From Macrocystis pyrifera (taxonomy: Eukaryota > Sar > Phaeophyceae > Laminariales > Laminariaceae): DNA of 64,000 nucleotides. The translations under genes and the position numbers were made by a program. The stretch covers positions 7,630,523-7,694,522 of the forward strand of contig JASSKH010000024.1 in NCBI GenBank assembly GCA_031763025.1. The letters run 5' to 3'. Each line of letters opens with the position of its first letter. The first letter of the stretch is position 1. A model generated the notes under the pieces. It searched no databases and was not told where the DNA came from. It saw only the letters and a program-made list of their open reading frames with translations. This document shows positions 658 through 47,484 of this stretch, one piece after another.

Positions 658-1743
658 CATTTCCGTCGCTTTCTCGACTTCCACACCACTTTATCGGCGT
701 TCGCTTCCGTCGCAGATCTCCCGGACTTGTCGGCGTCTGATTCCGTCACAGATTTCAAGGCGTCGTCGACGTCCGATTCCGTCGTGGATCCGGTGGCGTC
801 GTCTGCGCCCGTTCCGTCGCGAATCGCACGGCATTGCCAGCGCCCGTTTCCGTCGCGAAACCCAAGACGTTGCCAGCGTCCGATTCCGTCGCGAAACCCA
901 CGACCTTGCCGGCGTCCGATTCTGTCGAGGTATTCACATAGCCAAGGGCATCCGATTCCGTCTCGAACCCCAAAGCGTCGTCAACGTCCGATTCGGTCAC
1001 GGATCCAACATATTCTTCAATATTCGATTCCGTCGCGGACCCCACGGCCATGCGAGAGTCCGGTTCCTTTACAATCGCGGATCCCACGGTACGTTCATTG
1101 GCCGATTCCGTCGCGGATCCCATGGCCTTGCTAGAATCCGTTCCAACAACAAGCGTGGATCCCGCGGCCTCGACAGCGGTTGTTTCAGTCGCGGATCCTA
1201 AGACTTCGTCGTCGGCGTCTGTTGTCTGTTCCCGTCGTGGGATCCACAGCCTTATCGGCGTCATCTATCGTCGTGGACGGCCTTACCGATGTCCGATATC
1301 ATCGCGGACACAACAGCGTTGTCGGCGTCCGTTTCCGTCGCAGACCCTACGGCCTTGTCCGCGCCTTCTCCCGTTGCTGATTCCACGCCCACGTCCATGA
1401 ACGATTCCGACGCGGACCTGGCGGCGTCGCCGGCGTCCGGTCCCGTCGCGGACCTCACGGCCTCGTCAGAGGCCGTTTCAGTTGCGGATCCCACGGCTTC
1501 GTAGGCGTGTATTACTGTGGCGGATTCTGCAGTCTTGAAGGCGCCCGTTTCGCCCGCTAGGGTGGATGCGCTCGGTAAGCCATTACCGCGATCATCACAC
1601 CGAGCATGATCGCGGCCGAGTATCGCGGTTGACCACCACGAGCAAACGGCGGCGCACTTGAGCCAGTCGAGTGGCCCGAGGCAGCGGAGAACGCCTTCCA
1701 GCAGTTCGGGCATGCATAGGGCTTTCTGCCCCAAGTGATTCAT
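658..1743 (-). pseudogene. F-box-like protein with 12-residue tandem repeats, frameshifted
   Basis: The minus-strand frame opens at 1743. After about ten residues comes an F-box-like stretch (MPELLEGVLRCLGPLDWL, then a KCAAVCSWW segment), matching the usual pattern of a Leu/Pro-rich helix followed by Val-Cys-x-x-Trp. F-box proteins are SCF ubiquitin-ligase adaptors, but no substrate-binding fold can be recognised here. From about 1510 down to 690 the protein is a string of roughly 23 diverged 12-residue units (consensus like GSATESDADKAV), encoded by a 36-bp minisatellite; some units have 14 residues. The frame breaks near 1225-1290, where the first frame stops at 1261 and the repeat resumes in another frame, and again near 755-800. 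After both shifts the repeat phase runs to a stop at 658-660. This could be a decaying gene, sequence error in repeats, or an intron I cannot place. The F-box call is moderate; the repeat is directly visible. Confidence 0.5.
690..1510. repeat. 36-bp minisatellite (TCCGATTCCGTCGCGGATCC-like units)
   Basis: About 23 imperfect copies of a 36-bp unit run through this stretch on the plus strand, each carrying a variant of TCCGTCGCGGATCCC followed by ACGGCCT or GCGTCG. On the minus strand they encode the 12-residue repeats of the F-box-like gene. Units differ by substitutions and occasional 6-bp length changes. Confidence 0.8.
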
Positions 1744-3540
1744 GGTGCAAACCCCGTGTGCTTCTCAGCGAGCGACGGTGTTCCTGAAGGGCATGGATTG
1801 TGTGCACAACGAGAAGAGGAGCTACGTTAGGAACTTTGATGAGGAACTCTAGCTTGGCAAACAGCAGCATAATGATATATAACTAGCTCTATAAAGTAAA
1901 GAGAATCTACATGCGGTGATAAGGTCGAGGGCACCGGATTGACTTGGCTCTACCGGCAGGACACAAGTGAAACGGGCGTGCGGGACGTTGGTACCGCGTC
2001 TCGTTATCGAGCCATGGGTTATCTCAAAGCTTTTTTTTTCGAGTTTTTCGCACGTTCTTGGTAGCCCACCAACCCCGTCGTGCTATACCGACGTACGTAC
2101 CCCGTATATTATACGTACCAGTTACTTGTAAAGAATAATATCACAGAGTTGGTCAATACGTACCATGTACAAAGCATCGACGAGGGAGGCATGAGGGTGT
2201 GAGGGGTGAGGGAACTTCTACGCACGATGATTCATCGTGCGTTTTTATTGCTAACATGGTCCTTTCTCCTGTACATGTGCAAATACAGCATCCTGAGAGG
2301 CGTCGAACCCTCAAATCAGCGGTGGAGGGCGCCTATTCGGAGGGCGGCTAATCGTATGGACGCTGTTCGATTCTTCTAGCCAACATCAATGGTTACTGCT
2401 CTATACCAGGTACCTGGTAGTACCTGGTATACCGAAGTGCGTGCATGTAGGTGCCTCGTCATCAATTACTGCTGTCTGTGGTCGTCAGGTGATATCCGGG
2501 GAACATCTTGGGTTTCCTAGGTGGATAAGGATCTTGCGGCGGGCATATGTGATACTGCTGCTTGCTGCTGGGAACATCGTGCAGCAGTCAGGGTGTGTCG
2601 CCCACAGAGCATTGGAACGGTTGGAATGGAACGTAATGGTCCCCAAGAATTGCCGCTAATTGGTTATGAATATTTTTCAGTTCATGGATTCCAAGCGTTC
2701 CCACCCTGTCCGTGTTTCTTCGAAGAGGAAGACCAACTTCATGTTTCCTTTCTTTTCTTGACGTTGTGTTTTTTTTTCACCCTTCTTCGTGTTTTTGTTC
2801 TTTCCGTTTCTTCTTTTTTTCGAGTGCACATAAAATATCATGGATATGTTCCTGGGATTTTCGTATTATTGGTTGCAAGTAATACGGAATGGTATGCCAC
2901 GCTAGTTACTAATAGTACCATTCCCTGCTACGTTCTGGTGCCGCGGTGCGCCTTATTTCGTGCATGTACGGGTACGTGTTTTGGTTTTCTCCCATCGAGG
3001 TAAGTGCCTTTTTTGTTTCAGCCTATTTTGTGACCACAGGCAGGATTTCAAGAAGACGAGCTAATATGAGAACATCATCATCATCATCATCATCAATAAC
3101 TTCTAGATTTGTCCCGAGGGTGCCAATTGGATAGCTAGCTCTGCGTGCACTTAGGCATGCCTTGCGCTGTATTCATGTGTGAAGCCGACCTCTGAGCCAA
3201 GAGCACTCACTACCCCCCGTGACGGTTCCCCTGCCCTAGAGTCAACCAAGCACCGCGTCTAGCCGCAAAGAAAAAGTTGGGTTATTTTATTACCAGGTAC
3301 CAGGTATGAAACACGCATAACAACAGCCGTCGACATGGCGTCAACTAACGGAGGGTTACTTTATGTTGAGTCTGTTCAGGGTCGGTTGCAAAACTCCAAT
3401 CGGGCACGAATCCCGAAAAAAAAAACAGCTTGGAATGGAACGCACGATTATACCTCGGACAGATCATAATCTACTGTACAGCAGTAGATAATATAGAACT
3501 CATATAGATGTCTCACTCTCTGAGCGTGCTCGGTTGGTAC
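1744..3540. other. Intergenic, no gene recognised
   Basis: Open frames here are short and carry no recognisable domain or exon-like splice context. The stretch has scattered short palindromic words such as GTACCAGGTAC and CAGCAGTA, a small (ATC)n run near 3075-3095, and pyrimidine-rich DNA at 2750-2825. I see no RNA gene. Confidence 0.5.
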
Positions 3541-5317: not shown

Positions 5318-5592
5318 ATTGATACGCGGAAAGCGCGAAAGCGTGAGTTGGCTACATTCGATGAAAATCGACGAGCAGTGGGAATGCTGAACCCTATGCG
5401 CGACAAAAAACAAAGGCACGTACCGGGGGGGAGAAGGGACGACACCTGTGACCACGGCTTGTCCAGAAGAACGTCGAGGGTAAAACCTCCTACGAGTGGG
5501 CTGGAAAGTAAAAGTGATGGATAAAAAAAAAAGAAAAAAAAAAAAGGGCAGGGCAAGGGTTGCCCCGCTGTTCCCTAGGGTTTTACCATATA
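5318..5592 (+). repeat. Dispersed repeat shared with 17.28-17.50 kb
   Basis: The stretch beginning GGAAAGCGCGA and containing ATTCGATGAAAATCGACGAG and GAGAAGGGACGACACCTGTG recurs in direct orientation at 17283-17500. A shorter inverted relative lies near 51,835-51,910. The right end (about 5545-5592, GGGCAAGGGTTGC...TTCCCTAGG) recurs inverted near 22,785-22,840. Confidence 0.7.
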
Positions 5593-6058
5593 ACAAAAGG
5601 TTGGCCGGCGGTATGACAATTCTCTCACGACGTCGATATTTGCCACGTAGAATATTTCTTGTTTGCAGATGCTGCTGTTGCCGCTATTTCGAAGCAAACA
5701 CATAAACAAAACGTCACAGTCGAGCATCGCGCAGATTGCGATGACCTCGACGTGTCGCGAACCCACCCACACCAAATAAAACGCTGCCGTGAAGTCAAAG
5801 ATTACAAAAGGCATACAAGTAGACTTTTCGCCGATGATCGTCACGTACATGCACCCCGTAAACAACAATATGTCCACCGAACAGTTAATACAAATGTAGC
5901 TGTTGAATGAAGTTATACGGGCAGTCTATCTGCCTCGGTCACTCTCTGTCTCGGCATTTCTCTGCTTTACCAGGTATGCTTCTTCTCATGCGTGCGACCC
6001 GGGTGATTATCTCACCAAGGTGCTTCAGCGCGGCTGATCCCGCGCTGAGCTCGTAGGT

Positions 6059-6792
6059 CGTCCAAGCCGTTCCAGCTTGACTCGTGCACGAGTATATAAC
6101 ATCACAAGCAGTTGCAGTGAAGTTTTGAAACTTTGCGCCACGAAAGTCAAGAAGCTCGTAGGAGTACAGGGTACAGCAGTTCTCGTGAACAATGTTCACG
6201 CGTATTCGTTCACCTGGGGATTATTTTTGGGTCTCGACAGGTGTCGATCAGGTTGTCTCGTGCCGTCTCTTCTTCCTGGTACACCAAAATTCATCAACCT
6301 CAACTGCAAGCCGTTTTGACTGCATCTCCCAAGTTGCAGGAAGAAGGAAGGCTTTGTTGTATGAGCAGGTATGATATGCCAGTTATGTCATACATGAGGC
6401 ATTCCGGTTAACTTACCGCCGCCTGGTGTAGATATCACCGTCACCGTCGCTGTGATGGCGCTGATGTCCCGTTGTGCGCTTCGATCCTCTCCGTAGACGG
6501 GAATACTCGGCAAGCTGGGCGTGCCAGCTACGATCAGCGAAAGTAAGCGAAATGGGAAGGGACAACTGGGGCTAAGCTGGCGAGACCCTCCGCATACGGA
6601 GAACAACGGAAAATTACAGGAGCTGATTGAGTAAAGCTGCACTACTGGCTGCTATCTGCTGTGCGCTGCTGCTCCGCGGCTCTGCTGGCTCTGCTGTCTG
6701 CTGTCGCGGTGTTTCTTTGTACCCCGTTTTTCCGGACTAAACAAACAAAACATACATTTGGAACTCCTTGTAGATCTCGGAAGTCGGAAGCG
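6059..6792 (+). repeat. Long direct repeat, copy 1 (734 bp)
   Basis: This block is about 99% identical by eye to 16025-16759. The differences I saw are a few substitutions (for example near 6202), a 2-bp difference near 6409 and a 3-bp difference near 6765. Identity starts abruptly at CGTCCAAGCCG and stops abruptly after GTCGGAAGCG. It lies 276 bp upstream of the start of the transposase/exonuclease gene, so it may hold that gene's promoter. I see no TG...CA ends and no target-site duplication at the outer borders. No protein was recognised inside it. Confidence 0.9.
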
Positions 6793-7068
6793 GCGAGTCG
6801 TTCGTATACCGGGCCAGATCTGCTTAGCATTCTCCAATCATATCGCTCCACTTGCTTCGCATCGTAACGCACGCAATGTTTGGAAACCCATTTTTGCTTA
6901 GCATTGACCAATCAAGAGGTCCATTTTGCTTCACATCGCGCCGCACTTGCTTGGCATCGCGCCGCAAGGCCCGCGCTCACGGCACACACCCAGCAGTTTG
7001 GCTGTGCACCTCCGCACCGCATTCCCATACACGCATCGCCACACAGCGCACCCATACCCACGGCATTG

Positions 7069-10000
7069 ATGAGCGACCTTCCGCGACGGGGGCGCCCCTC
7101 TGGCTCGAAAACGAAGAAATCCGAAGCAAAACGAACTGGGCCTGTCCCAGGTTCGAGGAACAAGCGTCCTTCTCCTGTTCGGCCCAGTCCGTTCTCCGCT
7201 CCGTACGCGAAAACAAGACCACCAGTGGCGAGTACACCCGACAACAGCAGTCGGCGTGCACCAACCGTGGGCGTGACAGCACCAATAACCTGTGCTTCTG
7301 CCGCAGCAGTGAGCGACACATCTAGTGCAAGCGCGGAAGCGAGTAGAGAAGCAGAGGCAAGGGTGCCGACACTAGTGCCGGCCCCGCCTGCAAGCTCTTC
7401 TCCCCCCCAAGGCCCGCAGTCAGTCATGCCCGAAACGGCTGACGAAGGCTCTGGAGCGGACGCAAGTGGCCCTGTTCGAGAAGCGAGTGGGAGGTTTGGT
7501 CCCGGCGTTGATTTTGTGCGGGCGTTGACTCCCCAGGATAGGTTCGCGAAAATGGTGAGGGCAGAAGTCGACGAGCGGATGAAGCGCAAGGGCCATGGGT
7601 CCAAGCACGGCGTGAGTGGAAAGCTTGACCGGGGGTCTCCGTGGTTTTACCCCCCTGATCCGCTTGTATATCAGCAGTACCTGATCGTGCTATTCACATG
7701 ATGGTACCGATTTTCCTCTGCTCGTGGGAGTTCATCGACCCCGACATCAAAGCACCATCGTGTCCGAATTGCCACAGCCCCGACAACGTGAGTTCGACTA
7801 CTGTGGACTATCTCGAGCTTTGAGTTGTTGCTCGTATGACTGCTGTAGTCTAGAGTACCAGTACCGGTAGTTCGTCTTGCAGCTTTGCTATTGCTACCTG
7901 CTCCTGCTTGGTACGTTTGTGGGCGCCAGCACTCGCAAGTACCTTTTGTGTTGGCGTTACGCTCACCTCGTGGACTAAAGTAGCGCATGAAGATGTGTGC
8001 GCCAGCCTGCCGTACAGGCGGCAGATAGTTGCGTTGCGGCGGCCGCTTTGCCAGCTGCAGGGGTTGCCGCGTACAGCAGTCGTATTAATATTATAGCTGT
8101 GAGTCTGTTGCCCTAGGCGCTCCTGCTGTGGCTGTCTGCGATATTGTACTGCACGTATAGACCCACAGTAGTGCTGGAGCTGGACAGCAGTCGGTACGTA
8201 GTCATGTATCGGCAGGCCGGGCCTAAACTCAGTCAGGACAGGAGGAAAGAGCATCCGTACGTAAAAGGCGTTTTCCTTTCTATGCACGTATGTCTCAGGT
8301 GGTCAGCGATGGATGGGATCCGCAACGTCGTACCGTCTACGGGGAGCATTACAACTACGAGCTCCTAGGATTCCAACACAAGTGCACTGCTTGCAGAGAA
8401 ACGCAGGGCAAGGGAAAGAACGCCACGACGTCAAGGTGAGGTTGTTTGAGGACGGGGCAGATGGCGTGGGTGTGTGGTTCGTTGATAGCTCGTTGACTTT
8501 CGAGTGCTGTATTTTGCCCCTCAAGAGACGTGATGCGGGTCACAGTAGACAACTGTAGTAGGGTTTAGTCTACGTATGAATAGTACACGTAAGAGTAGTA
8601 CCTTAATTCTTTATCCTCGTCCCCACCCCACGTCACCACGTCGTGTGCTGTCACACGGTCTTGCTTTCCCCAGCTACAAGTTCGCGCCATGGCATCCAGA
8701 AGCTCTTCGCCAGCTTCCTCGTGACCTGCTGATGCTGTTCCCCGCCATTATTTTACGGCGGTCTGCCGTAGATAAGAGGATCGTCACGCGTATCGAGCAG
8801 GCTGTCGTGCGCGGTGTGGGGTTCAAAGGCGTGGCGGACGACCTTCGCGAGAACCATCTCTTGTATTACCACGAGATGGAGGTGCGGTGAGTGGAACCTT
8901 TGGGTTGCATATGCTCTGCGCGGTAGTAAGCTCAAGCGGCAACCTTCATGTAGTGTTTTATCTTCGAGCCCATGCCCACCCCTTCAGTGAACAATATGCA
9001 TTCATGAGACCGCCTTCGCCTTGTTAATGCCCTCCGTCTAGCTCATGTGTTCGTACTGTTGCGGTGAAATGTATCGTGCAGGTACTATTTCCGGCTGGCG
9101 AGGAAGCGAGCGCAAGGGCAGGCCTCCGTGGTGCCGGACGAAAACGAGAAACTGCGGAACCCTCTTGTCTTTGGAAAATTCGGCGACCCTTTGGGTTACA
9201 ACGGCAAGACTCCTAGCGCGAGCCTCCTCGCCCGCGTGTGGCTCGTCGTGTTTGAGGGAAAGGAGCCGTATTATCATCGACATGCTCAGCGGGTGGATGG
9301 TCAAAATGCCGGTGGGGACGAGTCTCACAAGATGACGAAATCGATCAGAGTCACAGACGACAAGGTTTTCCACGGAGTGTACACCATGGTGAACGAGTTC
9401 GGCCAAGTGATGCTTCAGGTGAGTCCCATATTTATGTTGGGTCGGTACCCGGTGCTTAGTGTATCATCTTGCGTGTAGCTTAGGTGACAGACCTAAAAAT
9501 TGTCTTTGAAGCTATACACTAATCGTTGGCAACCCGACCACCTTGCTCCCTACCGCCCTGCCCTGCTCCGTTTATCTTTTCTCCACATCTCAATTCTAGC
9601 GTCCCAAGCGGCATGTGTCAGTTGGATCTCTCGACGAGATCAAGACGGATCTTAAAGGCCTTGCCCAGCGGTATGTGATGAATGGATTTGATCCCCTCCT
9701 GGTGAGTTTCGTCGTTAGTTTTCCGGAGAGACTACTAACAAACGAAGATTTTAGGGCTATGAGTATATGTCAGGAGGGAGTACTATAGCACCAAGGGAGA
9801 CTATTTGATAGTTCGCAGGTACGGTGCCTCGCATCCGAGTGATGATGTGCTTGCGCTTCTGTGTTTGTCCCAGAAATGGGTCCGTACGGCTTAACACCTT
9901 ATCAACACTTGTCCTTGTCACAACGCGTGACAGGACGACTCGTTCCCTTTCATCACTGCAATACGTAGACGTTTGCTCGTGAACGCATGCGCTTTTAGGA

Positions 10001-13000
10001 CATTGTAGTTTATTAATCATTTTCGATGCTTTGAACATCAGCAATGAATGACGCAGCTTGACCTCCCTTGTGCGCCCTTGGAAACATTGATATAGGTGTT
10101 TTACTCGGACGTTTGCTGCGGCGACAGGAAAACAATCCAGGAAACCCTAGGCCCTGCCTCTCGCGCACTGACCGGGAGCACGACTGCACCGTCGTCAGCT
10201 GCCGCCGGAGAAACGCTACCGCATCTCGCATTCCCTCCGGACGAGCAAGCAGTGAAAATCGTCGTAAGGTCAGAGCGGTGCGACGTGTCAGCCCTGGCAT
10301 GCTCGCAGCTCCTGGCAACGGCGCGGCGATTGGCAAGTAAGGTGGCGGGTCGGGCGACTGTGCTTGGCTTCGATTGTGAGTGGAGCGTGCGGGTAAGCGG
10401 GGTTCGACCAGTGGCAACGATTCAGCTCTCTGCCTTGGAAGGCGACACGGTCGTCTTCCACATCAAGCCGAACGAGAACAGACCTGGGATCGTGCCCAAA
10501 GCTCTTCAAGAGATATTAATGGCCGAGGATGTCCTTCTTGTGAGTAAATCGACTTCGTTTATGCCATGACGTGGTCGATAAAGTTGGCACAGGACGGTAG
10601 ATACGTCAACTACTTGCGGGCCGTCGTTGTCCGACGCGACAGAGGTACTGCTGTAGCTTATCGATTCGTGCACATGCCTTCTCGTGGACATGCCTCCTCA
10701 GGCGGGAGTTACTGTGGGCCATGATCTCACTCTCATCAGGGACAGCTACGACGTGGAGGGCGCCGGGATGGTGGATCTTGGACAGCTGGCGACGAAGCAT
10801 TTGGGAATCGCTGTGGGGTCGCGTTCACTGGGCAGTCTTTCGACGACCCTACTCCGTCGACGACTTTCCAAGGCCAACAGCGTTCGCATGGACAACTGGG
10901 AGAAGGAGCTGACGCCAGAACAGGTGTGTACTGCGACGGTCCCTCCACAGGGCAACAGTGTATATTTCTCGTTTGTCGCCTTTTGGGCTGTTGCAGATCG
11001 CAGGTACGAGGTTTGTTGCGTTTGTACGTGGTATAATATAACGAGAACGGTTGCTGGCATTCGAGAGGGATTGCCAGCAATAAAGTACTGCCATATGAGA
11101 GTTTTAGTGCGACTTGTAAATCAAACGCGCTCCATGGACCGATGCTTATGTATTTTTCTTCATCAGGTACAGCCGTCGTGAGATCTCATGGGTCTCTGCG
11201 CGCGTTTTTTCGATTGTGTATAGGTTAACTATGCGGCGCTGGATGCCCGTGCTTCGGTTCAGCTCTATGCCCATATCTTCACCTGTTCTCGCCCGAGTGT
11301 GCAAGATCTAACCCTGGGCACACTTTTACGCCTGTACACGAGAACGAACTCCCGTTTCGTGGCGGAAGGAACCCTCGTTAGTCACCACTCGGGCGAGAAG
11401 TGGGGCGGCACGCAGATAGTTGTTGGGGCCGGCCGAGCGGTTGTGCAGCTCACCAAGGTTCAGGTGGGGGCTGCTCTCATGCTGTACCCGAACGAGAGCG
11501 GCGGAGCCTTGAGACCACTGCAGGCCGCCCATCTTGGAGAGCAAGTACTGTGGGACGTGGTGAGTTAGACTACGACGAACAGTGAAAGCCATAAATGAAG
11601 TGCTGCTTCAATCGTAGACCACGAGAGAAAGCAGTGGTTGCCGCGGAAACGTTCCACCATGATACCTGCTTCACGTTGCTTCTTGGTACACTGACGTCCT
11701 TAACTTACTGGACGTACAATTTAATTTACGAGAAAATTGTTTCGCCTTACGCAGGTGAACACCAGACTGCCCAAAGACCCGCCTCCTGACCCCATGCTTC
11801 CTGGAAAGGGTGGAAGCCCACCACCTCCTCAGCCTAACGCGAACAGGTTGGAGGTAGAGCAGGAGACAGCATCGCCAATCAATGCTGGAGCGAGTGTCGA
11901 AGTTCCCGCAGGCATTCCCCGTGTCGATCTAGATCTGTGGCACGCAGAGAACCGGCTGGGCGACTCTGGCTGTAAAACGCATGGGGCGCATAGGTCCTTC
12001 ATGGCTCATCTGCGTGATGCGCTTGCAATTTCCGACCCCGTCAAGCTCCAGGCAGTCAAGGACAGGTGGAAGGAGCGACATCCAACTTGGGATGACAGGA
12101 AAATCGACCGCGACATGAGGGCCAACTACACCAACAGCGTCCTGAAGCACGTGCCGCGTACGGTACCTCAGCCACCGATCCTCACGCAGCGGTTTGATGA
12201 TCTGTGTAGCGCTTTCGAAAACGTCCACGATGCAAAGACAGGTGGGCATCAACTCGGATTAATGCTCCACAGCAGTATCGGAATTTTGTGCTCCCTTTCG
12301 AAGCCGCCATCTACCACTGGTTTTGCCCTTGTTTATTTGCACACGATTTTTGTTTGAGCTTATCGACGTATACAGCCCCGCCATATATTTGGTACTGCAA
12401 ATTTAGCTGCTGCTCTGCAGGTTACGATTTACTAGATCCGATTGCCACCCTCCTTGTTTTTGCGCTGCTACAGGTCAGCCATACATCAATGATCGTCTAC
12501 GGAAGAACATGACGAACCTGCGGCCGCATCTTGTGGATGGATGCGTGAGCGATCCAGACCCCCGTGATGTACCCTTGTACCACTGGTCAGGGCGCACTGC
12601 GGACGGGGCGGACACCTACCGCTCATCGCGAGGGACCAACCGGGTGGAGGCATACCACACACCGATTCGTCGTCTTTTTTCCGGCTTCAGGACCTCTCCA
12701 CGTATTGCGCATTCCATCTTACTTGCCTTCAACTACAGGCGGAATCATCGCATGGCAGGTGCTTTAGCCTTGGCTCCGGCGGCTCAGTCGCAACTTGCTG
12801 CGTTTCCGCTTGATTAATGCGATGTGCGACTATTCCTTTCGTGTTGGTATCTTGTTGTTGTCGGAGCTTGTGTTCCCGGAATTTCACTTTCGATGTCGCT
12901 CTCTCGTACGCGGTTCGCAGTCAAGAGGCGAAACGTGCTAGATACCGGCGAGCGTTGCGACGTACCAGGGTAGGGTACACTGCATCAGGTACACTACATT

Positions 13001-14652
13001 ATCCTCGCATGTGTCGCGCTGCTCTTAATTAATACGTAGTTTTGAGCCACGATGGTGTATCCCAACGTTCGGGCAACTCCTAACGCAGCGTGATCTATGA
13101 TACCATATATTAATTATTTTCCAGGAAAGCACAGGGGAGTGGACCCAGAGTTGCTAGGGTTCTACGCACATGAACTGATAGACGATGTTCAGGAGGCTTC
13201 ATCCGGGATATTCTCGACCCCCCTCTATCCCGAGTGGGATTCTACAAAGAACTACCTGGACACCGGGGAACTGACCGGGCTGGTGACCGCGCGGAACCCC
13301 AGCACGGAGTTGGAAGAGTTTTCGCTATCGGAAGCGTGCGGCGGCGGGGATGACCACGCTGGCGATACCGACGACGAGGATGGACCGCAGCGCCAATCAT
13401 GGGGAACTGTGGACGGTCTAACCCCTGCTGCTCGGTAAGGTGCTGTGTTCGTTTTGTTTAGCTGTCGTGCGTACCGTTGACTTTCCATTGTTGGCGCCTA
13501 TCTATATATGGAGTGCTTGCACGTGCTTTGTCTCCGTGTTCTTTACTAAACGAAGCGCTGGTGGTGAGGTCTGAGCGACTGGCACCACTTGATCTCGTTG
13601 AATCGTGCGTTCCCTTCCCCGCTAGGTTTTTCGCGGCGATGCAAGGTGGCCAGTCAGGAGACCGGCCCTTTACCGCCGTCAAGACCCCGGCGGAGAAGGC
13701 CAAGTTTGACCGTGACGCCCTTCGCCACCTTGTGCCCCGAGCCCAGAGACAAGCACACCCCCACATACCCGCTCAGGTACTGGATTGGGATGCGATGGCA
13801 GAGAGCTGGAATGAGGATGTCGCACGCGGAGAACGGAACGTCTTGGCCGGGCGGCTAGAGGTAGACACAAGCGAGAGCAGCCTCATCCACAGGAAAACGC
13901 CAGCCGACCTCAGAAATTACTGGACCGAGTCAAAGAAGGTGGTGAACGAGAAGCGGACAATGGAGCCCCACTGGGGGCGCCTCGCTCAACTGCGCCAACA
14001 CCAACGAGTGGAGCCAATGGCGACAGAAGCTAGTGACGCGCTTCGTGACAGCAGGCCGGCCAGTTTCGGGGTGGGCCAAAGTGGAGACGCCATTGTGTTC
14101 CCGTGCATCCCTTCAGCGCAAACGGCTCGAGCCGCACCAGCACCGTGTGCCTTTGCTCGTGCTGGCCACGGGGCGTTGGCGAACGATGTCGATGTTGACC
14201 GCGGGGGTGATGATGTGGAGGGCAGCGGGGGTGGAGAAGGCGATGGCGTAGGCGAGGTCAATGTAGGAGGGGAACCTGTTGGCGGGGCCCTGCCAACGCG
14301 GACGTGGGACAGTGCCACGGTTGGTGACAGCACGTTCGTTGTTCCTCCGCAGGCGTGTAGCACGCTCCAGCATGTCGCGCCTAGGTTTGGCATTGGTGGA
14401 CCCACCCCTGACCAGCAGCAGGTTTGGAATCCTACCCCCAAACTCCGGACCGCCCCTGCAACGTCACGTCGTCGGATGTGCCAGCAGTGTGGCCACTACA
14501 TGAGCACGATGCGAGCGTTGCATACCGTGACCAATAAAGCGGGTCAAAAGTCAAATTGCCTTGTGCCAGCTGAGGGGCGTAGAGAGGCAGACCATCCAGC
14601 CCGATTCAGGAACCGGTATGAGCCTTGCACTTGTGCAGTGTGTTCAGTTTGA
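7069..14652 (+). CDS. Transposase-like protein with embedded WRN-type 3'-5' exonuclease (1517 aa, 13 exons)
   Basis: I join exons 7069-7665, 7731-7787, 8299-8435, 8674-8886, 9082-9418, 9600-9701, 10096-10539, 10702-10923, 11224-11559, 11755-12241, 12474-12758, 13125-13434 and 13626-14652. All introns are GT-AG, every phase matches, and the 4554-nt total has no internal stop. Residues 1-199 are low-complexity with an AT-hook-like RRGRPSGSK near the start. Residues 200-335 hold paired CxxC motifs (210/213 and 247/250) in a DUF6729-like context. VTDDKVFHGVYTMVNEFGQ (about 426-444) and VFYSDVCCGDR (482-492) resemble the first and second Asp regions of a DDE transposase. Residues about 570-720 are a DEDDy exonuclease: FDCEW (D574, E576), VGHD (D637), YAALD (Y706, D710). 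RGTNRVEAYH (Glu 1036) and the RRNHRMA region resemble a transposase C-terminal end. Exon 13 ends with a Cys/His cluster. Exonuclease: high confidence; transposase reading is inference. Confidence 0.85.
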
Positions 14653-16024
14653 ACGATGGGTTAAGGCTCGTGTGTCTAGAGTTTGAGGACTGCTCGTGTT
14701 TCCAGAATTTGAGGACTAACGCCCAGACGGGTATAGAGGGTAGGGCAACTGGACTCAGTCCGGCGGGGAGGCGGCGTAGCCTGGGTTTTTGTTAGTGGGT
14801 GAGTTCGCGCGATTCCCACACTACCCGGAGAATTATTTTCCGGGTGGCTATCTCCACCGCATCTGATCCCCAGTGGGAGGATCAGGGCGGGTCGACATAC
14901 TCACGCGGCCGCACGTCACGGCAGCACCGTCGTGTTCTACGACCGAGTTAGAATCGACACACGACACAGATGTGGAAGTGTGGTGAGCTTAAGCTTTTTT
15001 TCCCCTTCCTCTGGAGGATAAATAAAATGAAAAAAAGGGGTGTACGCGAGGGTGACCGGGACAGTCTTTTTTTCTGTTTTTCGACACCTCACGAAAAAAA
15101 ATATTAAAATAAAAAACAAACCGGAGCGCTGGGAGCGCTGTGATCACAGGACAATTTAAGACAATTGAAAAAAATACAAAACCAATTTTAGATCACTTGG
15201 TTTAAAAGACGGGGGGGGGGTCTCTACACATGATTTCAACTTCTGTTTTTGTTAGGAAGTCTTCAATCGTCCTGTGTTTTCCATTTTGATCTTGTCATGT
15301 GAGACGTCGAAAAAAGGCTTTTTCGGTCGCCCCGGGTGTACGAGTACCCATTGTGACAAATATATTTTTTTAGTGGACGCTTATTTTTGCGTAGACCGTG
15401 GGAGTCTTCTTCCTCCCCCTCCGCCGTGTTTTATAGATTTCTTCGTGTTTTTCGCGCATAGGGTTCCACATTCCTTCTCGATTGCCACCGAATTTTGCCA
15501 GCGTGCGCTCTCGCACTTTACTTTCATCGGCGGAAGCAGAGTCAGAAAAAGATGAAAAAGAGTACAACAGCAGTTGCAAATCACACGTTATGTCAGGTGT
15601 CAGTATATACCGGTATAGATACTTGTATCATACCTCGTACGTTACATGTTTACCACTATGTACCCACACATACCAGGTGTACAGCAGTATGTAAGGACCG
15701 TTTGATATATAAAATAATTTCTGAACGGTACTTACATTCCCGGACAGAGTGGCGTTCGTAGATGCCCCATGTATTTAGATGTAGAGCTACAAGCAAGCTC
15801 TGATGACGAGTAAAAACACTCAACACTTGCAGCTAACACTGCACAGAACAAATGGATGTAATATCGGGCCACACAGCAGCCTTTGTACCCTACGTAGAAG
15901 CTAGGTAAGTTTTCTCGTTTACTGCGTACTGTCCCAGTTACGTTCAGCGCCGGGTTTCCAAGATTTTTCGCGGGCTTCGCCCGCGGAATTAAATTAATTA
16001 AAAGCTGGCCCGGTACACGAAATA
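14653..16024. other. 3' flank of the exonuclease gene, no gene recognised
   Basis: A near-direct duplication (GAGTTTGAGGACTGCTCGTG / CAGAATTTGAGGACTAACG) sits just after the stop at 14,680-14,720. The rest is AT-rich with mixed homopolymers. A short perfect hairpin, CGCGGGC TT GCCCGCG-like, lies at 15,968-15,983 just before the second long direct repeat. No exon-like segment was found. Confidence 0.5.
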
Positions 16025-16759
16025 CGTCCAAGCCGTTCCAGCTTGACTCGTGCACGAGTATATAACATCACAAGCAGTTGCAGTGAAGTTTTGAAACTTT
16101 GCGCCACGAAAGTCAAGAAGCTCGTAGGAGTACAGGGTACAGCAGTTCTCGTGAACAATGTTCACGCGCAATCGTTCACCTGGGGATTATTTTTGGGTCT
16201 CGACAGGTGTCGATCAGGTTGTCTCGTGCCGTCTCTTCTTCCTGGTACACCAAAATTCATCAACCTCAACTGCAAGCCGTTTTGACTGCATCTCCCAAGT
16301 TGCAGGAAGAAGGAAGGCTTTGTTGTATGAGCAGGTATGATATGCCAGTTATGTCATACATGAGGCATTCCGTAACTTACCGCCGCCTGGTGTAGATATC
16401 ACCGTCACCGTCGCTGTGATGGCGCTGATGTCCCGTTGTGCGCTTCGATCCTCTCCGTAGACGGGAATACTCGGCAAGCTGGGCGTGCCAGCTACGATCA
16501 GCGAAAGTAAGCGAAATGGGAAGGGACAACTGGGGCTAAGCTGGCGAGACCCTCCGCATACGGAGAACAACGGAAAATTACAGGAGCTGATTGAGTAAAG
16601 CTGCATTACTGGCTGCTATCTGCTGTGCGCTGCTGCTCCGCGGCTCTGCTGGCTCTGCTGTCTGCTGTCGCGGTGTTTCTTTGTACCCCGTTTTTCCGGA
16701 CTAAACAAACAAAACATACATTTGGAACTCCTTCTTGTAGATCTCGGAAGTCGGAAGCG
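16025..16759 (+). repeat. Long direct repeat, copy 2 (735 bp)
   Basis: Near-identical to 6059-6792. It ends 74 bp before the start codon of the ZIP transporter, so it probably overlaps the promoter and 5' leader of that gene. Either this is the original location and copy 1 was duplicated in front of the exonuclease gene, or the pair brackets a mobile or recombined 9.2-kb unit. Confidence 0.9.
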
Positions 16760-16833: not shown

Positions 16834-19800
16834 ATGAGCGATGCACCTTCCGCGGACTTGTTTAAGGCCATGGCGGCTCTAATTCTCTTCTTGATTGCCT
16901 TGGTGGGAGGGATCCTGCCCCGAAGATTGCGGAATATCGGCTCTAGAGTGGTCTCGTGTCTGAACTCAGCGGCAGGAGGAGTCTTCTTCGCATCGGCGAT
17001 GGTGAGGACAAATCAGAGGGCAGTCTCTAGGATAGGTCCGTGTCCTTACAAGATCATTGGCATCATGGCCTCGTCATGGTTGATGATGTGGAGCCACGCT
17101 GATCTGTGATCCTCGCGAAGACCTTTGATGATATTACAAGCAATAGTGTCCTATCTCCTCCACGCGTATCTACAAGCTGGCCCAGCCGAGATGCTGATTG
17201 CGTGGTTGATCGCGCATGCCCCGCTCATTTGTTGGGGATGTGATTTTTTTACACCAGCCGTGCAGCGTGATCATTTTGATTAGCGGAAAGCGCGAGAGCG
17301 TGAGTTATTAATAGCTACATTCGATGAAAATCGACGAGCAGTGGGAATGCTGAACCCTAATGCTGAACCCTATGCACGACAAAAAAAATAAAGGCACATA
17401 CCGGGGGGGAGAAGGGACGACACCTGTGACGGCTTGTCTAGAGGATCTCTGAGGGTAAAAACCTGCTCCTACGAGAAAGTAAAAGTGATTATTAAAAAAA
17501 AAAAAAAAAAAAAAAAGCCGTGATCATACACCCAACCAACAAACGGTCACCTTTTTTTTTTTTTTTTTTTTTTTTCGTTTGTTCGAGGGATGTGACCGAT
17601 ACAACGATCCGAAAAATACAACAGCGGCCATAACTTGTCTGGAAAAAACAACAAAAATGGCGGGTTCTCCGTTTGTTTGCACATGCGGTTCAAAAACTGA
17701 GGTTTGCTTTTCGGATCGAAGCTCGCAAAATTGAGCGGGGCATCGCAGAAAAACCCACATTTCTCGTAATTACTTGTTTTATGTATGAAAATCGTGTTTT
17801 GGCAATTTATCTGTTGGTGGGTTGCGAATTGGGCAATGAAAATAATAACGAATCGATCTTGTTCTATAATAGGGTCTTCGGCCACGTCTCCACCAATGTT
17901 CGCTAATGGAGAACGACGATTTTGTTGCGAATTTTGTGTTGAAAAATTGGCGTTTTTGAGTTTCCGCCGATAACTCGTCGAGATCGAGTCGAAATATAAT
18001 AATGTCCTAATTTTAACCTACTTTTTTTTCTGCGCGTGCAGCGTAGTGTCAGGGTCAGTGCCTCCAAACTTCAAGTCCATATTCCCAGTGGTTCACGAGA
18101 TACGACCTTCGGATGGTTTATCCTTTTTTCGGCTGGCCCAGCTCGTACCATATTGAGATCCCCCGCTCTACCTTCCGCTCTGACTTGGTTGCAGTTGGGT
18201 AGTTTTGGCCCCAACACAGCAGTATTTTGCCGCATTGTCTCCGACTATCATATTTGTGTACGGCATGGACTGAACTGAGACACACGAAGTGCGCCAGTGA
18301 CCGTGTGAGCCCTCCCGCTTTATTTGTCCCCCAATGTCTCTCGGCGGAGCACGAGCGTTGCGCGCCTTGCTCTACGCCGTACGTGTTAAATATCTGGTCC
18401 CTGGTATTAATAGCAGCTTGCACGCCGGCCAATACCTCGCGGGTCGTATACATGTATAGTGGTATACGAGCTGCAAAACATACAAACTACAAATTCCTGT
18501 ACACACCCGTGACATGCAAGCGGAATCCTGCTGACATGGGCTCCACGCTGTAAATACATGCTACTGCTGTACAAAAATCCGCAGCCTGTCGCTCTCGCAC
18601 ATACTAGACCTCACCTGTCGGCTAGACAGCGGGGCGAAGCAACCTACGCGAAAGAGGCCCGAAGCCGTCCCGTCCCGTCCGCCTGCCGTTTTTGTCGCCG
18701 TACGGGTGGTACTCAAATATAGTGGGAGAAGCAGGACGGGCATTTACCACCACCACGCCGTCACACCAGATACCAGATGCTGTTGTTGAGGAGGCCGCGG
18801 TGTGAGCCTTCGACTGGCCGCCCCTGGCCGCCCCGGACCCTTCGTGCGTCTAATGCGTGTATTAACCTTTTTAGAACTGCATTCCCGTTTTAGGGACATA
18901 CCACTCAAATTTTCAAGCAGTCGTCTCCTAAACGGGACTGCAGTCCTAAAAGACTTACAACGCCAACATGCCGTAAAGAGCGTCGAGCTCGCACAGAGAG
19001 GGGGTGCGATCGTTTTTCAGCGCTCGATTTTTCCAGAACGGGAAAGTTAAGGTTGCCAATACACCGAATCCTTTTCAGGGCCGCAGTCTCATTTGGGGAC
19101 AACCCACTTGGAATTTGAGTGGTTTGTCCCTAAAACGGGACTGGGGTCCTAAAAAGGGTTGAGGTGATTTCGGAAAGATCTGGTCGAGAGCCTTCCGAAA
19201 ATAAAATGTTGTCGGCTTAAAAGCACCCTTACCACCGTTGTCGAGAGAAAACGAGCTGCTGAAAAACGATCGCACCCCTACGCGACCCTCAACGCTTTTA
19301 GGACCGCAGTCCCGTTTCGGGGACAAACTACTTAGAATTTGAGTAGTCTGTTCTCAAAACGGGACTGCAGTCCTAAAAGGTCTTGACCCGCCGACGAAGG
19401 CCAGCCTCCTTCTCCTGTCATACCACTTTTTCTTTCAACAGGTCGCCGCCGTCGCTACCGGTACGTGAAAGAACCTTCACTCCGCACAAGGGTAATGATC
19501 GTATCACGTACTGTTTAGGAGGCACCCAAGAGGCAGGTACATAAGTACTCCCATTGCTGTCTCTGGAAGTGGCTACACCGGAAATTAAAGTAACTCATTG
19601 AAGCTGTCATCCATATGCAAGTCCGCCTCACACGCGGTTCTTAGTACTGTAGGATGCAGCTCATCCTTCACGTGACTCGCCGGACACCTCACGGCGCTTC
19701 GCGCTTGGTGCAAACAATGTCTGCTTGGTCGGAAAACCCGAGATGCCCCGCCCCGGCATTGTGGGGATGCGAGGGTCTATGGTCATACGAGTACGGCCAT

Positions 19801-22800
19801 GCATGAGATCGAGTACATCTCTCCTATCGAGTACACCCCCCCTTTTCCCTAGCGCATATGCAGATTGAAACAGCAGCATGCAGTGTGCATCGGCAGTGTG
19901 CATCAGCGGTGTGCAGCAGCAGTGTTGCGATGGCGCCGAGGAGGCTATCTGTTTCTTCCTCCCTCCCGCCCGTGCCCTCACGACGCCCTGGGCACATTAA
20001 CGCCGCTCTTCTCTTGTCGGCGAGAGAGAACTTATGAAGACCCCTCTTTGCACGTCGTACGCCGCAGGCTGCCACAGGCTGCGAAGCAGGAAAGGGGAAA
20101 GACGAGCCAAAAGTTTGTATGTACTACGTGGAAACGAAGTAATGAGCGCCCAACTGTTGGAGGGGGCAAAATGAGCAAAACGTTTCTATATAATATGTGG
20201 AAACGAAATAGTGAGCGCCTAACTGTTGGAGGTGTCTCTACTAGGAGTAGGAACGGTGCTCCGTCTCGAAAGGGATGCGTGGTCATTGGTAAAATTACTG
20301 CAGTAACGCGAGCACCCCCCCTCCCCCCGCCTATGGTCGTACGACTACGGCCACGCATGATAATGAGTACACGCCCACCCCCCCTCCCGGCTGATCGACA
20401 GGTTCATATGTTGCCCGAGAGCAGCAACACTCTCCAGGACGCGTGGGGGGATGCTTTTCCATGGGGAGGCTTAATCTGCTCCGTCGGCTTCCTCCTGGTA
20501 AGCTAACCGCGAAACCGCCTAGGCTAATTATTTCTCAAGTGCCGGGCAAACATGCCCCCGTTTCTTGTACTGCAACCCCTACGTACGGTATTACACGCAA
20601 GATAACACCCCCCCCTTGCTGGGATGAATTTCCCGGTCGTTTTTTTTTTCTCTATTAACATGGGAAGCACGCACAACGAAGGTAGTGGCTTTGGAAATAT
20701 CTCGTCGAGATGATCTCTCCACAGACGCTTCGCTCGGCGATTGCATTGTCCCCGTCGTGGCGAAATCAGCTGTAGTCCCAGTGACATTCGTCCGAGTGAG
20801 TGTGGGGGTGTATTATCTTGCGTGTAATGCGGTATACTTGACACCAGTATTTTTTAACTTTGGGATTGCTGGTTACCCTAGCGGCTCTTCAGGCCTGTGT
20901 GGTACTTTCTACCGCTTGGTGTGCGTGTAGTCTGTTTTCCCTCCTCGAGAGGCGGGAGGGGAGGGGGAATCATATCATGCATGACCGTAGTCGTGTATCC
21001 ATACACCCTCGCAGTTTTACGATGCCGGGACGAAGCACGTCGGGTTTGCACCGATCAGGCAGGCATTGCTTGCATCAAGCGCGAATCGAAACATGCCGGG
21101 GGTGGGGGATGCCAAGGGTGTGGTAGGTTCACTACTGCTGTACTTCCGCTCAATGTGCGTCTATTTTCTTTTCCTCCGCTATCAGTTGGGAGAGGGGGGG
21201 GCAAGAGCGTGACGGACTTGTAATTAGCCGGCGCCATCAAGCGGCTCTTGGTACCGCGCAAGAGCCCTGCTGGCGGGAGAATTACGCGGCTTTTTTTGCC
21301 AGCCCAAAGAAAATCCAATGTGACACCCTCATCTGAAGTACTCGTGACGAAGGTCTCTCGTGAACTGGCCCGAGAAAAGGCGGGGTCCGCAGGCTGACCG
21401 CGTTGCCCGCCCGCGGTCTGATTGCACCCGGTTGGAGTAGCGTCTTGTCAGCTATTATCCCGTGGCAATCTGAAACGTTCAGCCTAACAACTCCGTGAGA
21501 CAGTGGGTGGGTTGCAGCCCCCCCGAGACCGGACAAACACCTGATAATCGGCCGACCAACCAGTTTTAGCATCACCTTCGCTATATGGCACCATTACGCT
21601 GGCGCGACCTCCCCCCCCCCCCCTCTCCTCTCATCCTTTCGCCGCGTCCCGTCGCCGTCCCTCCCGCGTGTCTTGTCTGTGTCTTGTCCCACCATTACCC
21701 AACTTGTTTGACGTGTTATTGGCATCGACCAAGCGTCTCCTTGGCTATAAGACGCAACCGCCCCCGCCCCCCATACGATTACGGCCATGCATGACATGAG
21801 TACACCTCGCCCCCCCTCCCATCCTTCCTTTCGCCGCGTCCCGTCTTGTTCGGCAGATTCTTTGCATTGACCAAGCCGTATCGATATCTAACTCCCGTAG
21901 GATAGGGAGGACGGGCCACACCTTGGTGCCAACGGTGAGCGCGAACGAGACCACGCCGTTTTTTCATCAAAGACGAGACGTCTATTGGACGGGCGGGGTG
22001 GGTGCCTTCTTGTACGTCGAGAAAGTGGCGGTCGTAATTGTAGAAGTCGTGACTGCGGTAGGAGTTGCAAACAAGGGTTGCAATCAGGGGTTGAAATTAT
22101 GGGTTGCATTTAGAGGGTTGATTTTTTGAGCCCAACCATTTCTGGCTCGTACGTAGAGGGTGATTGCGAAGAATTTGGTTGGAACCATTTTTGTCGGGTT
22201 TCTTGTGGTCTGTTTCCTGTGTAGTAATGACCCCAATTCCTGCAATCTTCCTGAGGAGTCAACCCAACCCGATATTAGTTGGGTTTAAAGTGGCATTTCG
22301 GCCTCTTGTTGCCACACCCTTGAGAAGAGTCTGAATTTCCGTTCGGCGGGGGTCATCTTTATACAGGAACAACAGACCACAAAAACCCCCCAACTGAATG
22401 TGGGTTTCAACCAAGAACCTCCGCGAAACACCCTGTTTCTTGCTGCGGGGAGCTCTCGTCAAATAATGAGATTTTTCCCAACATTTCTGACATCTGATAG
22501 CACAACCACTCTGTCCCTAGATGTAAGGAATGCTTTGTTTGAATATTAGAGCGACAAAGGTCCTTGGGTTAGAGTTAGAGTTTGGGTAGGGTGATCAGCG
22601 TCCACTGTATAAGCATGCCTGGTATCTCCTGCTGTTATCACTTCTTTCTTCTGAAAAGCCACGCAATGAACAATAAATAGCGTCAACAACAGTAGTAGCG
22701 TCTTGAAACAAGTAAAATTCTACCTAGCAAGTATCTACGTCGCGAGAGAATTTCCATGCCTCAGTCCAACCCTGTATTAAATGGTAACACCTAGGGAACA

Positions 22801-35694: not shown

Positions 35695-35744
<50 letters not shown>

Positions 35745-36448
35745 TAACGCCTCCCTCCAATCCCCCCTCCCACTGCCGCGCTTTTGAAAAACACAAAAGG
35801 AACTCCGCAACTTGGAGCGGGAGATGGGAGACCTGGACATGGCCTCCCTCGAAGCCGAGTTCGACCAGGAGGACGACGAGACCATCACCCACGCGCTTCG
35901 GATGGCGGCGGAGTCTGCCATGGCCCACACGTCTGGGGGGTGGCCGCCGCATCCGTACCGCCTCCCCCGTTGGGGCCACCTCCTCGCGATCGCCGGGAAC
36001 CGCCGGTGGTTTCGTAGGTGGTGGTGACGGCGGTGGTGGGGGGGGTCAGGGGGATGCGGAGCGGGCGCTTCGCATCGGGTCAAACATGTACGACTCCGCG
36101 GGGTTGGGGGGGGGGGGAGAGGAGGGAATGGGGCGGGAATTTTCGTCGCCTCGTTCTGCTCCGCCTCAGGCGGGGGCGGGGGGCGGGCTAGGAGACCTAG
36201 AGGCGTTCAGAAAGATGGAGGCAGAGGTGGGGGGGGAGTTCGGGCGCTGGGGAGCAGGCGGAGGGGTGGGGGGGGGGGAGGGGGAGATGGAGGGTGTGGA
36301 CGATGATTGGGCGGTGCTGTCGCCCGCGGAGCTGAAGCGTAAGACGGTGGCGCAGCTGAAGGGTTACCTAGACGAGGAGGGCGTTGGCTACCCGGGGAAG
36401 GTGAAGAAGGCGGACCTTTTGGACATCGTCACTAGTTTCCTCGCCTAG
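30138..36448 (+). CDS. Predicted plastid-targeted coiled-coil SAP-domain protein
   Basis: Proposed exons: 30138-31120, 32093-about 32303, 32422-32801, 33893-34406, 34496-34666, 35800-about 35939, 36050-36448. The N-terminus is a hydrophobic presequence ending GLAFQLHA, the Ala-Phe cleavage signature of secondary-plastid bipartite leaders. A second hydrophobic Ala-rich stretch lies near residues 110-130. Exon 2 gives a membrane-like ELALFMLVTLPVLT. Exon 3 is an Ala/Glu heptad-type coiled coil. Exon 4 is very Lys/Ala-rich (KKVPAAAKKVPAAAK), DNA-binding in character. Exons 5-6 are acidic. The end, ELKRKTVAQLKGYLDEEGVG plus KKADLLDIVTSFLA, is a SAP fold, known to bind AT-rich DNA. I infer a membrane-anchored plastid nucleoid protein. 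Exon 2's donor has three in-phase candidates. The 34,407-34,495 intron ends after a poly-G run, so a homopolymer error is an alternative. The exon 6/7 junction is also G-rich and unresolved. Confidence 0.75.
34800..35328 (+). repeat. Family A dispersed element, near full length
   Basis: Starts at a G-run, then GTGTACTTGATATCATGC, and ends about 35,325 at ACGCCAACCCAACC. It matches 41.0-41.5 kb over most of its length. It has no protein-coding content and no obvious long inverted ends. It lies inside the intron between exons 5 and 6 of the SAP gene. Confidence 0.85.
35695..35743. repeat. Poly-C run, 49 nt
   Basis: An uninterrupted run of 49 C in the SAP gene intron, about 55 bp before the acceptor of exon 6. 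The true length is likely uncertain. Confidence 0.9.
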
Positions 36449-38784: not shown

Positions 38785-39030
38785 CTCAGTGAAGCTCTCG
38801 TCCATATGCAAGTCCGCCTCACAAGCGGTTCTTAGTAGGATGCAGCTCACCCTTCATGCGGCCCGCCGGACACCGCGCTTGGTGCAAGCAATGTTCTTGC
38901 CTGGTAGGTGAAAACCCGAAATGCTCCGTTCCGGTATTGTAGGGATGCGAAGGTCTCATGGTCATACGACTAGCGCCATGCATGAGATCGAGTACATCTC
39001 GTCTATCCAGTACACCCCCCCTGCCCCCCC
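38785..39030 (-). repeat. Family A dispersed element (minus orientation)
   Basis: Reverse-complement match: TCCATATGCAAGTCCGCCTC, GGATGCAGCTCACCCTTCAT and the left end GCCATGCATGAGATCGAGTA. It is followed by a C-rich run at 39,016-39,036. Confidence 0.75.
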
Positions 39031-47030: not shown

Positions 47031-47431
47031 GCGATCACCACGGCTGGCGGTCAAGTTAGATCATTTTTGTGCGGGGAGAACCTTCACTCCGCACAAGGGA
47101 GATAGATGATCGTATCTGTTAGTGTGTATATGGTGAGGCATCCACGAGGCAGTCACGTAGTAAACCCAGTGCTGTCTCTGGAAGTGGCCACACCAGAAAC
47201 TAAGTCAATTCATTGATGCCGTCATCTATATGCAAGAAAGTCCGCCTCTAAAGCGGTTCTTAGTAGGATGCAGCTCACCCTTCATGCGACTCGTCTAAAC
47301 ACCTCACGGCGCTTTGCGCTTGGTGCAAGCAATGTCTGCCTGGTCGGTGAAAACCCGACGTGCTCCGACCCGGCATTGTAGGGATGCGAGGGTCTATGGG
47401 CATACGACTACGGCCATGCATGATAATGAGT

Positions 47432-47484
<53 letters not shown>

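What the first reader, a model, noticed from the sequence alone, without database searches (positions are those of the whole stretch)
9082..12758. A DEDDy 3'-5' exonuclease placed between the presumed catalytic Asp and Glu of a DDE-transposase-like protein
Seen: an intact 13-exon frame in which VTDDKVFHGVYT and VFYSDVCCGDR come first. A complete WRN-type exonuclease follows (FDCEW, VGHD, YAALD; residues about 570-720), then RGTNRVEAYH and RRNHRMA. Known: DDE transposases often carry insertions between the second Asp and the Glu, and RGTxxxE-type ends occur in transposase-like proteins. Inference: the exonuclease is such an insertion, giving a transposase able to trim DNA ends, or a domesticated nuclease. 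All four exonuclease acidic residues and Tyr are kept, so it looks active.
Basis: partly seen in the sequence, partly recalled or inferred. Interest (0 to 1): 0.85.

Follow-up and report, generated by a model that had tools for sequence, protein, structure and literature searches.

The report
Dada transposon with built-in exonuclease
This is very probably a jumping gene of the known Dada type, whose transposase carries a DNA-end-trimming enzyme inside its cutting domain; the same arrangement was published in 2013 for a mushroom and a brown alga, so the main claim is right but not new.

Summary
A 13-exon frame (7069-14652, +, 12 GT-AG introns) gives 1517 residues: DUF6729 region with a CCCC finger, Asp427/428 and Asp486, a complete DEDDy exonuclease (D574, E576, D637, Y706, D710), DLWH (875-878), E1036 and a C-terminal CCHC finger. 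One exon (10096-10539) holds both D486 and the first exonuclease motif. What I add: the gene fills a 9.2-kb unit (about 6798-16024) with a 16/17-matching inverted repeat near its two ends, flanked by two 735-bp direct repeats (98.9% identical) beside a ZIP-transporter gene; no Rfam RNA gene was found there, although Dada elements with definable ends are reported in small-RNA genes. The flanking duplication is unexplained.

The parts
6798..16024 (+). transposon unit (ends uncertain by about 8 bp on the left, 1-3 bp on the right), 9.2 kb
   Evidence: bounded by the inverted repeat and by the two direct repeats; no second copy of it in the window
6801..6817 (+). left copy of the 17-nt inverted repeat
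   Evidence: 16 of 17 match the right copy; the only 2 sites in the window at up to 3 mismatches (0.28 expected, 4 of 100 shuffles gave 2 or more at that loose limit); best of 4000 random position pairs 13 of 17
16005..16021 (-). right copy of the 17-nt inverted repeat
6822..6957 (+). five copies of GCTTnRCAT just inside the left end, possible transposase-binding repeats (inference)
   Evidence: 5 of the 7 window occurrences lie here; the pattern was chosen after seeing them
7069..7665 (+). exon 1 (start codon, RGRP stretch resembling an AT-hook; 3' boundary uncertain)
   Evidence: the AT-hook label is recalled, no Pfam match
7731..7787 (+). exon 2 (first half of the CCCC finger, C210/C213)
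8299..8435 (+). exon 3 (second half of the CCCC finger, C247/C250)
8674..8886 (+). exon 4 (DUF6729)
9082..9418 (+). exon 5 (first catalytic Asp candidates D427/D428)
9600..9701 (+). exon 6
10096..10539 (+). exon 7 (second catalytic Asp candidate D486 and exonuclease motif I D574/E576 in one exon)
10702..10923 (+). exon 8 (exonuclease motif II D637)
11224..11559 (+). exon 9 (exonuclease motif III Y706/D710 and linker)
11755..12241 (+). exon 10 (DLWH = DxxH candidate, residues 875-878)
12474..12758 (+). exon 11 (RGTNRVEAYH, catalytic Glu candidate E1036)
13125..13434 (+). exon 12
13626..14652 (+). exon 13 (C-terminal CCHC finger C1461, C1464, H1475, C1487; stop)
6059..6792 (+). left direct repeat abutting the unit
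   Evidence: 98.9% identical to 16025-16759: 3 substitutions and 5 gap columns in 737; only these two copies in the window at E up to 1e-3
16025..16759 (+). right direct repeat abutting the unit, ends 75 bp before the ZIP start codon
16834..17001 (+). first exon of a neighbouring ZIP zinc-transporter gene (host side, not part of the transposon)
   Evidence: open frame, GT donor; three separated pieces of this gene match consecutive parts of PF02535 (profile 3-52, 54-88, 106-217; E 0.14, 0.036, 1.9e-6), each below the family cut-off alone

Best explanation
The gene is the transposase gene of a Dada-type cut-and-paste DNA transposon. Shown: a single long spliced gene model in a 9.2-kb unit with matching inverted repeats near its two ends; a protein with the published Dada landmarks in order and a DEDDy exonuclease with all its key residues between the second Asp and the DxxH motif. 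Inferred: the N-terminal zinc finger and AT-hook-like stretch bind the ends or the target; D427 (or D428), D486 and E1036 form the DDE centre that cuts the element out and joins it to the target; the exonuclease trims 3' ends exposed during cutting (at the donor site, or extra bases on the element) before joining or repair. The two 735-bp direct repeats are most likely host sequence upstream of the ZIP gene, duplicated when the two element ends joined two sites 735 bp apart (sister-chromatid or one-ended transposition), or by recombination between two copies.
For: Gene model and motif positions; exonuclease with five key residues aligned to EXD2 and WRN (which residues are catalytic is recalled); D486 and exonuclease motif I in one exon; CCCC finger C210/C213/C247/C250 (pattern in 0 of 5000 shuffles of residues 151-400), CCHC finger at 1461-1487 (pattern in 0.94% of 5000 shuffles), DLWH at 875. 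Published Dada: DDE, DxxH, N-terminal CCCC, C-terminal CCHC, introns (11 exons, 1402 aa in Dada-U6_DR), 4666-10979 bp, and a DEDDy exonuclease between second D and DxxH in L. bicolor and E. siliculosus. Unit ends. An Ectocarpus TE survey lists one Dada family with 15 copies, 1 intact (PMC12477816).
Against: No Dada protein could be aligned (none found in the collections searched; the paper's alignment is a supplement I could not open). DxxH alone means little (63% of shuffles have one). Published Dada-U6 and Dada-U1 lack terminal inverted repeats, Dada makes 6-7 bp target duplications, and families with definable ends sit in small-RNA genes; here there is a 17-nt inverted repeat 2-8 bp from the ends, no 6-8 bp duplication at the stretches compared at the inner or outer borders (only a 5-mer, misplaced), no tRNA and no Rfam match at gathering score. 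The two halves of the presumed RNase H domain match no solved structure (best E 0.73 and 0.72) and no transposase profile in Pfam.
Confidence: 0.9

Rival explanations
1. A domesticated host gene derived from a Dada transposase, kept for its exonuclease or DNA-binding function and no longer mobile.
For: Only one copy of the gene in the window; copy number in the genome is unknown. Domesticated Dada (dDada) exists in cyprinid fish (PMC8869645, passage).
Against: The gene still lies between matching inverted repeats and the candidate residues of both catalytic centres are kept, whereas in the fish dDada the two D residues are often mutated and DxxH has become DxxQ.
Confidence: 0.06
2. The 735-bp direct repeats belong to the element itself (long terminal direct repeats, as in KolobokP), so that the mobile unit is 6059-16759.
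For: Near-identical direct repeats at both sides; KolobokP has terminal direct repeats of around 450 or 660 bp (PMC9587614, passages).
Against: KolobokP repeats have their own inverted-repeat ends; here the inverted repeat lies between repeat and gene; no shared 5-8 bp in the outer-border stretches compared; no further copy of the repeat in the window; the right copy ends 75 bp before a ZIP start codon.
Confidence: 0.12
3. The direct repeats are an assembly artefact: two haplotypes joined end to end.
For: About 1% difference between the copies is of the size of heterozygosity in many algae (general knowledge, not tested).
Against: A clean join next to both inverted repeats would need a coincidence or breakpoints set by the element (inference).
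Confidence: 0.15
4. The exonuclease exons are a separate gene and the transposase-like parts belong to another.
For: No transcript data were available.
Against: Exon 7 holds D486 and exonuclease motif I in one open stretch of 148 codons; phases fit across all 13 exons; the same fusion is published in two other organisms.
Confidence: 0.02

Closest known systems
Dada-1_ES (Ectocarpus siliculosus) and Dada-1_LB / Dada-2_LB (Laccaria bicolor), Kojima & Jurka 2013, PMC3706591
   Same: DDE transposase with DEDDy exonuclease between second Asp and DxxH; CCCC and CCHC fingers; introns; size class (as described in the text).
   Different: No target or ends are given for them in the text I read (figures and supplements not seen); this copy has recognisable ends and flanking 735-bp direct repeats beside a ZIP gene. 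Sequence identity could not be measured. If the window is from an Ectocarpus it may be the same family.
Dada families of fish, Daphnia and Perkinsus (Dada-U6, -U1, -t; PMC3706591)
   Same: DDE, DxxH, both zinc fingers; introns except in Perkinsus; Dada-U6 and -U1 have short inverted repeats near their ends.
   Different: The paper names the exonuclease only for L. bicolor and E. siliculosus; these families are inserted in small-RNA genes with 6-7 bp target duplications (some copies with odd flanks at one end).
KolobokD and KolobokE (PMC9587614, passages)
   Same: DNA transposons that also encode an exonuclease.
   Different: KolobokD has a DEDDh (TREX/ERI1-like) and KolobokE a lambda-type nuclease; neither is described there as a DEDDy domain inside the DDE core.
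KolobokP (PMC9587614, passages)
   Same: DNA transposon with long direct repeats at both sides.
   Different: Its direct repeats carry their own inverted repeats; a His-Me nuclease instead of an exonuclease.
WRN / EXD2 exonucleases (PDB 2fbt, 6k17)
   Same: Same exonuclease family and aligned catalytic residues.
   Different: Not fused to a transposase (general knowledge).

Membership tests
Dada superfamily | catalytic DDE triad in an RNase H fold | tested here: inconclusive
Dada superfamily | DxxH motif after the second D | tested here: met
   DLWH 875-878, between exonuclease and E1036; weak evidence, 63% of shuffles contain a DxxH
Dada superfamily | N-terminal CCCC zinc finger | tested here: met
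   C210, C213, C247, C250; Dada-U6_DR C389, C394, C429, C432. First pair lies next to the uncertain exon 1/2 junction but is in both readings
Dada superfamily | C-terminal CCHC zinc finger | tested here: met
   C1461, C1464, H1475, C1487; Dada-U6_DR C1359, C1362, H1372, C1381
Dada superfamily | intron-containing gene in an element of 4666-10979 bp | tested here: met
   13 exons, unit of about 9.2 kb
Dada superfamily, exonuclease-bearing lineage | DEDDy exonuclease between second D and DxxH with all four acidic residues | tested here: met
Dada superfamily | 6-7 bp target site duplication | tested here: inconclusive
   none in the stretches compared at the inner or outer borders, but the flanks have been duplicated, which can hide it
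Dada superfamily | no terminal inverted repeats, short sub-terminal inverted repeats (stated for Dada-U6 and Dada-U1) | tested here: inconclusive
   17-nt inverted repeat 2-8 bp from the left and 3 bp from the right border: longer than the published 9 and 7 bp, and terminal or sub-terminal depending on where the ends are set
Dada superfamily | insertion in a multicopy small-RNA gene (families with definable ends) | tested here: not met
   no tRNA, no Rfam match at gathering score in the window, only sub-threshold matches at the borders. The paper states this for families with definable termini; Dada-1_ES and Dada-1_LB bear no target in their names
Dada superfamily | sequence relationship to other Dada transposases | not testable with these tools
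   no relative in the collections searched, which are viral, phage and prokaryotic
KDZ (Kyakuja-Dileera-Zisupton) | match to a KDZ profile | tested here: inconclusive
   no such match in Pfam-A at E up to 10; that Pfam-A holds a KDZ profile is recalled
KolobokP | terminal direct repeats that carry their own inverted repeats | tested here: not met
   the inverted repeat lies between direct repeat and gene

The most novel reading that the evidence does not exclude
Exonuclease-bearing Dada elements have left the small-RNA-gene niche: they insert near ordinary genes, end in true inverted repeats, and can join their two ends to sites hundreds of base pairs apart, leaving very long target duplications that carry a host promoter region with them; the built-in exonuclease would be part of that altered joining and repair.
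Probability: 0.1. Interest if true: 0.6.

Novelty: new member of a known kind. Interest (0 to 1): 0.3.

Why it matters
The copy is useful: its frame looks intact and its ends can be read, so it could let the ends and insertion site of an exonuclease-bearing Dada be examined, and make the untested idea that the exonuclease trims cut ends open to experiment. The link between DUF6729 and the N-terminal region of a Dada-type transposase would, if confirmed, re-label a family now called 'unknown function'.

Tried and rejected
LTR retrotransposon: considered because of the direct repeats; rejected because the gene product has no reverse transcriptase or integrase match in Pfam (the rest of the unit was not scanned for them in six frames), the gene keeps 12 introns on the + strand, the repeats do not begin TG or end CA, and an inverted repeat sits inside them.

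KDZ giant transposon: considered because such elements are abundant in Ectocarpus (PMC12477816); no KDZ match in Pfam.

Insertion in a small-RNA gene array (the direct repeats as array units): ARAGORN (bacterial settings) and Rfam found none; with a lax threshold 3 sub-threshold matches near the left border (best mir-127, E 0.034, 21.9 bits against a cut-off of 60) and 1 near the right.

Relatives: 3 scans of viral contigs and 1 of genome contigs, all by exact 8-residue patterns from this one protein, and tblastn of 657 residues against phages gave no relative. By their descriptions these collections are viral or prokaryotic, so this says nothing about how widespread the family is. I recall, from memory only, fungal proteins with a similar order of motifs.

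Literature: DUF6729 is in 0 papers of the held library. Searches were broad searches (5 and 0 papers). PMC3706591 was already in the listing, which showed that it mentions an exonuclease domain and WRN, led me to open it; searches came after. In the 2022 fish Dada paper the word exonuclease does not occur in the main text (term search). I did not see the flanking 735-bp duplication described, but no search was aimed at it.

Structure: not predicted. Copy number in the host genome: not obtained.
Full report
Observation. I rebuilt it from splice sites: exons at 7069-7665, 7731-7787, 8299-8435, 8674-8886, 9082-9418, 9600-9701, 10096-10539, 10702-10923, 11224-11559, 11755-12241, 12474-12758, 13125-13434, 13626-14652, all 12 introns GT-AG, 1517 residues, no internal stop. 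The finding's coordinates 9082-12758 cover exons 5-11 only. The exon 1/2 junction is the weak place: two readings score alike against DUF6729 (28.3 and 27.9 bits). No transcript data were available.

Domains. DUF6729 (PF20499) matches at 28.3 bits, cut-off 27. The exonuclease (PF01612) matches at 46.2 bits, E 5.9e-12, and its best matches among solved structures are EXD2 (6k17, 1.3e-15) and WRN (2fbt, 2.9e-13); the alignments place D574, E576, D637, Y706 and D710 on the conserved acidic residues and Tyr (that these are the catalytic residues is recalled). Otherwise Pfam-A gave only two sub-threshold zinc ribbons (E 0.089 and 0.81) for residues 192-1517 at E up to 10 and nothing for residues 1-199. 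The presumed transposase halves matched no solved structure (best E 0.73 and 0.72).

The fusion is real at the DNA level: exon 7 (10096-10539) carries D486 and the exonuclease's first motif in one open exon, and exon 9 carries the last exonuclease motif and the sequence after it.

Identity. Kojima and Jurka 2013 (PMC3706591; Results and Discussion sections read whole, abstract; figures and supplements not seen) define the Dada superfamily: DDE transposase, DxxH motif after the second D, N-terminal CCCC and C-terminal CCHC zinc fingers, introns except in Perkinsus, 4666-10979 bp, 6-7 bp target duplications, and, for families with clearly definable ends, insertion in snRNA or tRNA genes. [quoted passage not shown] The protein here has C210/C213/C247/C250, D427/428, D486, the exonuclease, DLWH 875-878, E1036 and C1461/C1464/H1475/C1487 in the published order. 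In 5000 shuffles each, the CCCC pattern occurred in none, the CCHC pattern in 0.94% and a DxxH in 63%, so the fingers and the exonuclease carry the argument, not the DxxH. I could not align it with a Dada protein.

The unit. A self-comparison of the window showed a direct repeat of 737 columns, 98.9% identical, at 6059-6792 and 16025-16759, on either side of the gene; these are the only two copies in the window at E up to 1e-3. Just inside them lies an inverted repeat, TTCGTATACCGGGCCAG at 6801-6817 (+) and TTCGTGTACCGGGCCAG at 16005-16021 (-), the only two such sites in the window at up to 3 mismatches (at that loose limit 0.28 are expected and 4 of 100 shuffles gave two or more, but both sites fit exactly). 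Placed against the borders, the best match among 4000 random pairs of positions searched in the same way was 13 of 17, against 16 of 17 here. So the gene sits in a 9.2-kb unit with inverted repeats near its ends, inside a duplicated stretch. The part of the unit after the gene has one ATG-started frame of 60 codons or more (69 codons). Five copies of GCTTnRCAT lie in the first 160 bp (pattern chosen after seeing them). A stretch at 15441-15519 resembles (72%) part of a dispersed repeat outside the unit.

The flanks. To the right is a ZIP transporter gene: three separated pieces match consecutive stretches of PF02535 (3-52, 54-88, 106-217), though each below the curated cut-off. Its start codon (16834) is 75 bp after the right repeat. 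The direct repeats are therefore most simply host sequence upstream of ZIP (inference). The arrangement is what two element ends joined 735 bp apart would give (sister-chromatid or one-ended transposition; the Dada authors invoke one-ended transposition for odd flanks), or what recombination between two copies would give. Long terminal direct repeats as in KolobokP (PMC9587614, passages) and a haplotype join are alternatives. There is no 6-8 bp duplication in the border stretches compared and no small-RNA gene was recognised, so two habits of well-defined Dada families are not seen in this copy.

Mechanism. Most likely a cut-and-paste Dada transposase whose DEDDy domain trims 3' ends made during excision. 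The domain order and residues are shown; DNA cutting, joining and trimming are inferred from the family.

Host. GC is 52.9%. My impression is a brown alga or a relative, and a 2025 survey of Ectocarpus lists one Dada family with 15 copies, one of them intact (PMC12477816, section 5 read), but the organism was not established. The host genome could not be searched (13 busy answers).

Verdict. Observation confirmed; interpretation supported; architecture already published. What is left of interest is a copy with an intact-looking frame and readable ends, and the unexplained 735-bp flanking duplication.

Noticed in passing
16834-26055 (+): A ZIP zinc-transporter gene in several exons starts 75 bp after the right direct repeat; the element separates it from the sequence left of 6059.
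   Followed up: partly
19470-19843, with similar stretches at 34817-35163, 38783-39022, 40988-41348, 47077-47433: A dispersed repeat of about 250-360 bp, 81-82% identical to the first copy; possibly a non-autonomous element.
   Followed up: no
5319-5546 and 17276-17517: A second pair of direct repeats (79% identical) lies just outside the 735-bp repeats; a short piece recurs inverted at 51857-51910 and a weak one inside the unit at 15441-15519, so it is probably another dispersed repeat.
   Followed up: no
23108-23523 and 57914-58316: A 93% identical direct repeat of about 418 columns, far apart in the window.
   Followed up: no
6002-6070 and 6957-6989: Sub-threshold Rfam matches: a hairpin at the left border of the left direct repeat (mir-127 model, E 0.034, 21.9 of 60 bits) and a twister-sister-like stretch (18.2 of 34 bits) just inside the unit; probably chance.
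   Followed up: no
43863-44330 (-): FKBP-type prolyl isomerase fragment (PF00254, 25.3 bits, cut-off 21.1); open frames on opposite strands at 43288-43863 and 43595-44164 contain very similar peptide stretches, suggesting an inverted repeat.
   Followed up: no
35573-36445 (+): Open frame ending in a HeH/LEM-type domain (PF12949, 31 bits, cut-off 28.9).
   Followed up: no
479-1764: Imperfect internal repeats with long open frames on both strands, next to an F-box-like match in 1267-1764 (-) below its cut-off.
   Followed up: no
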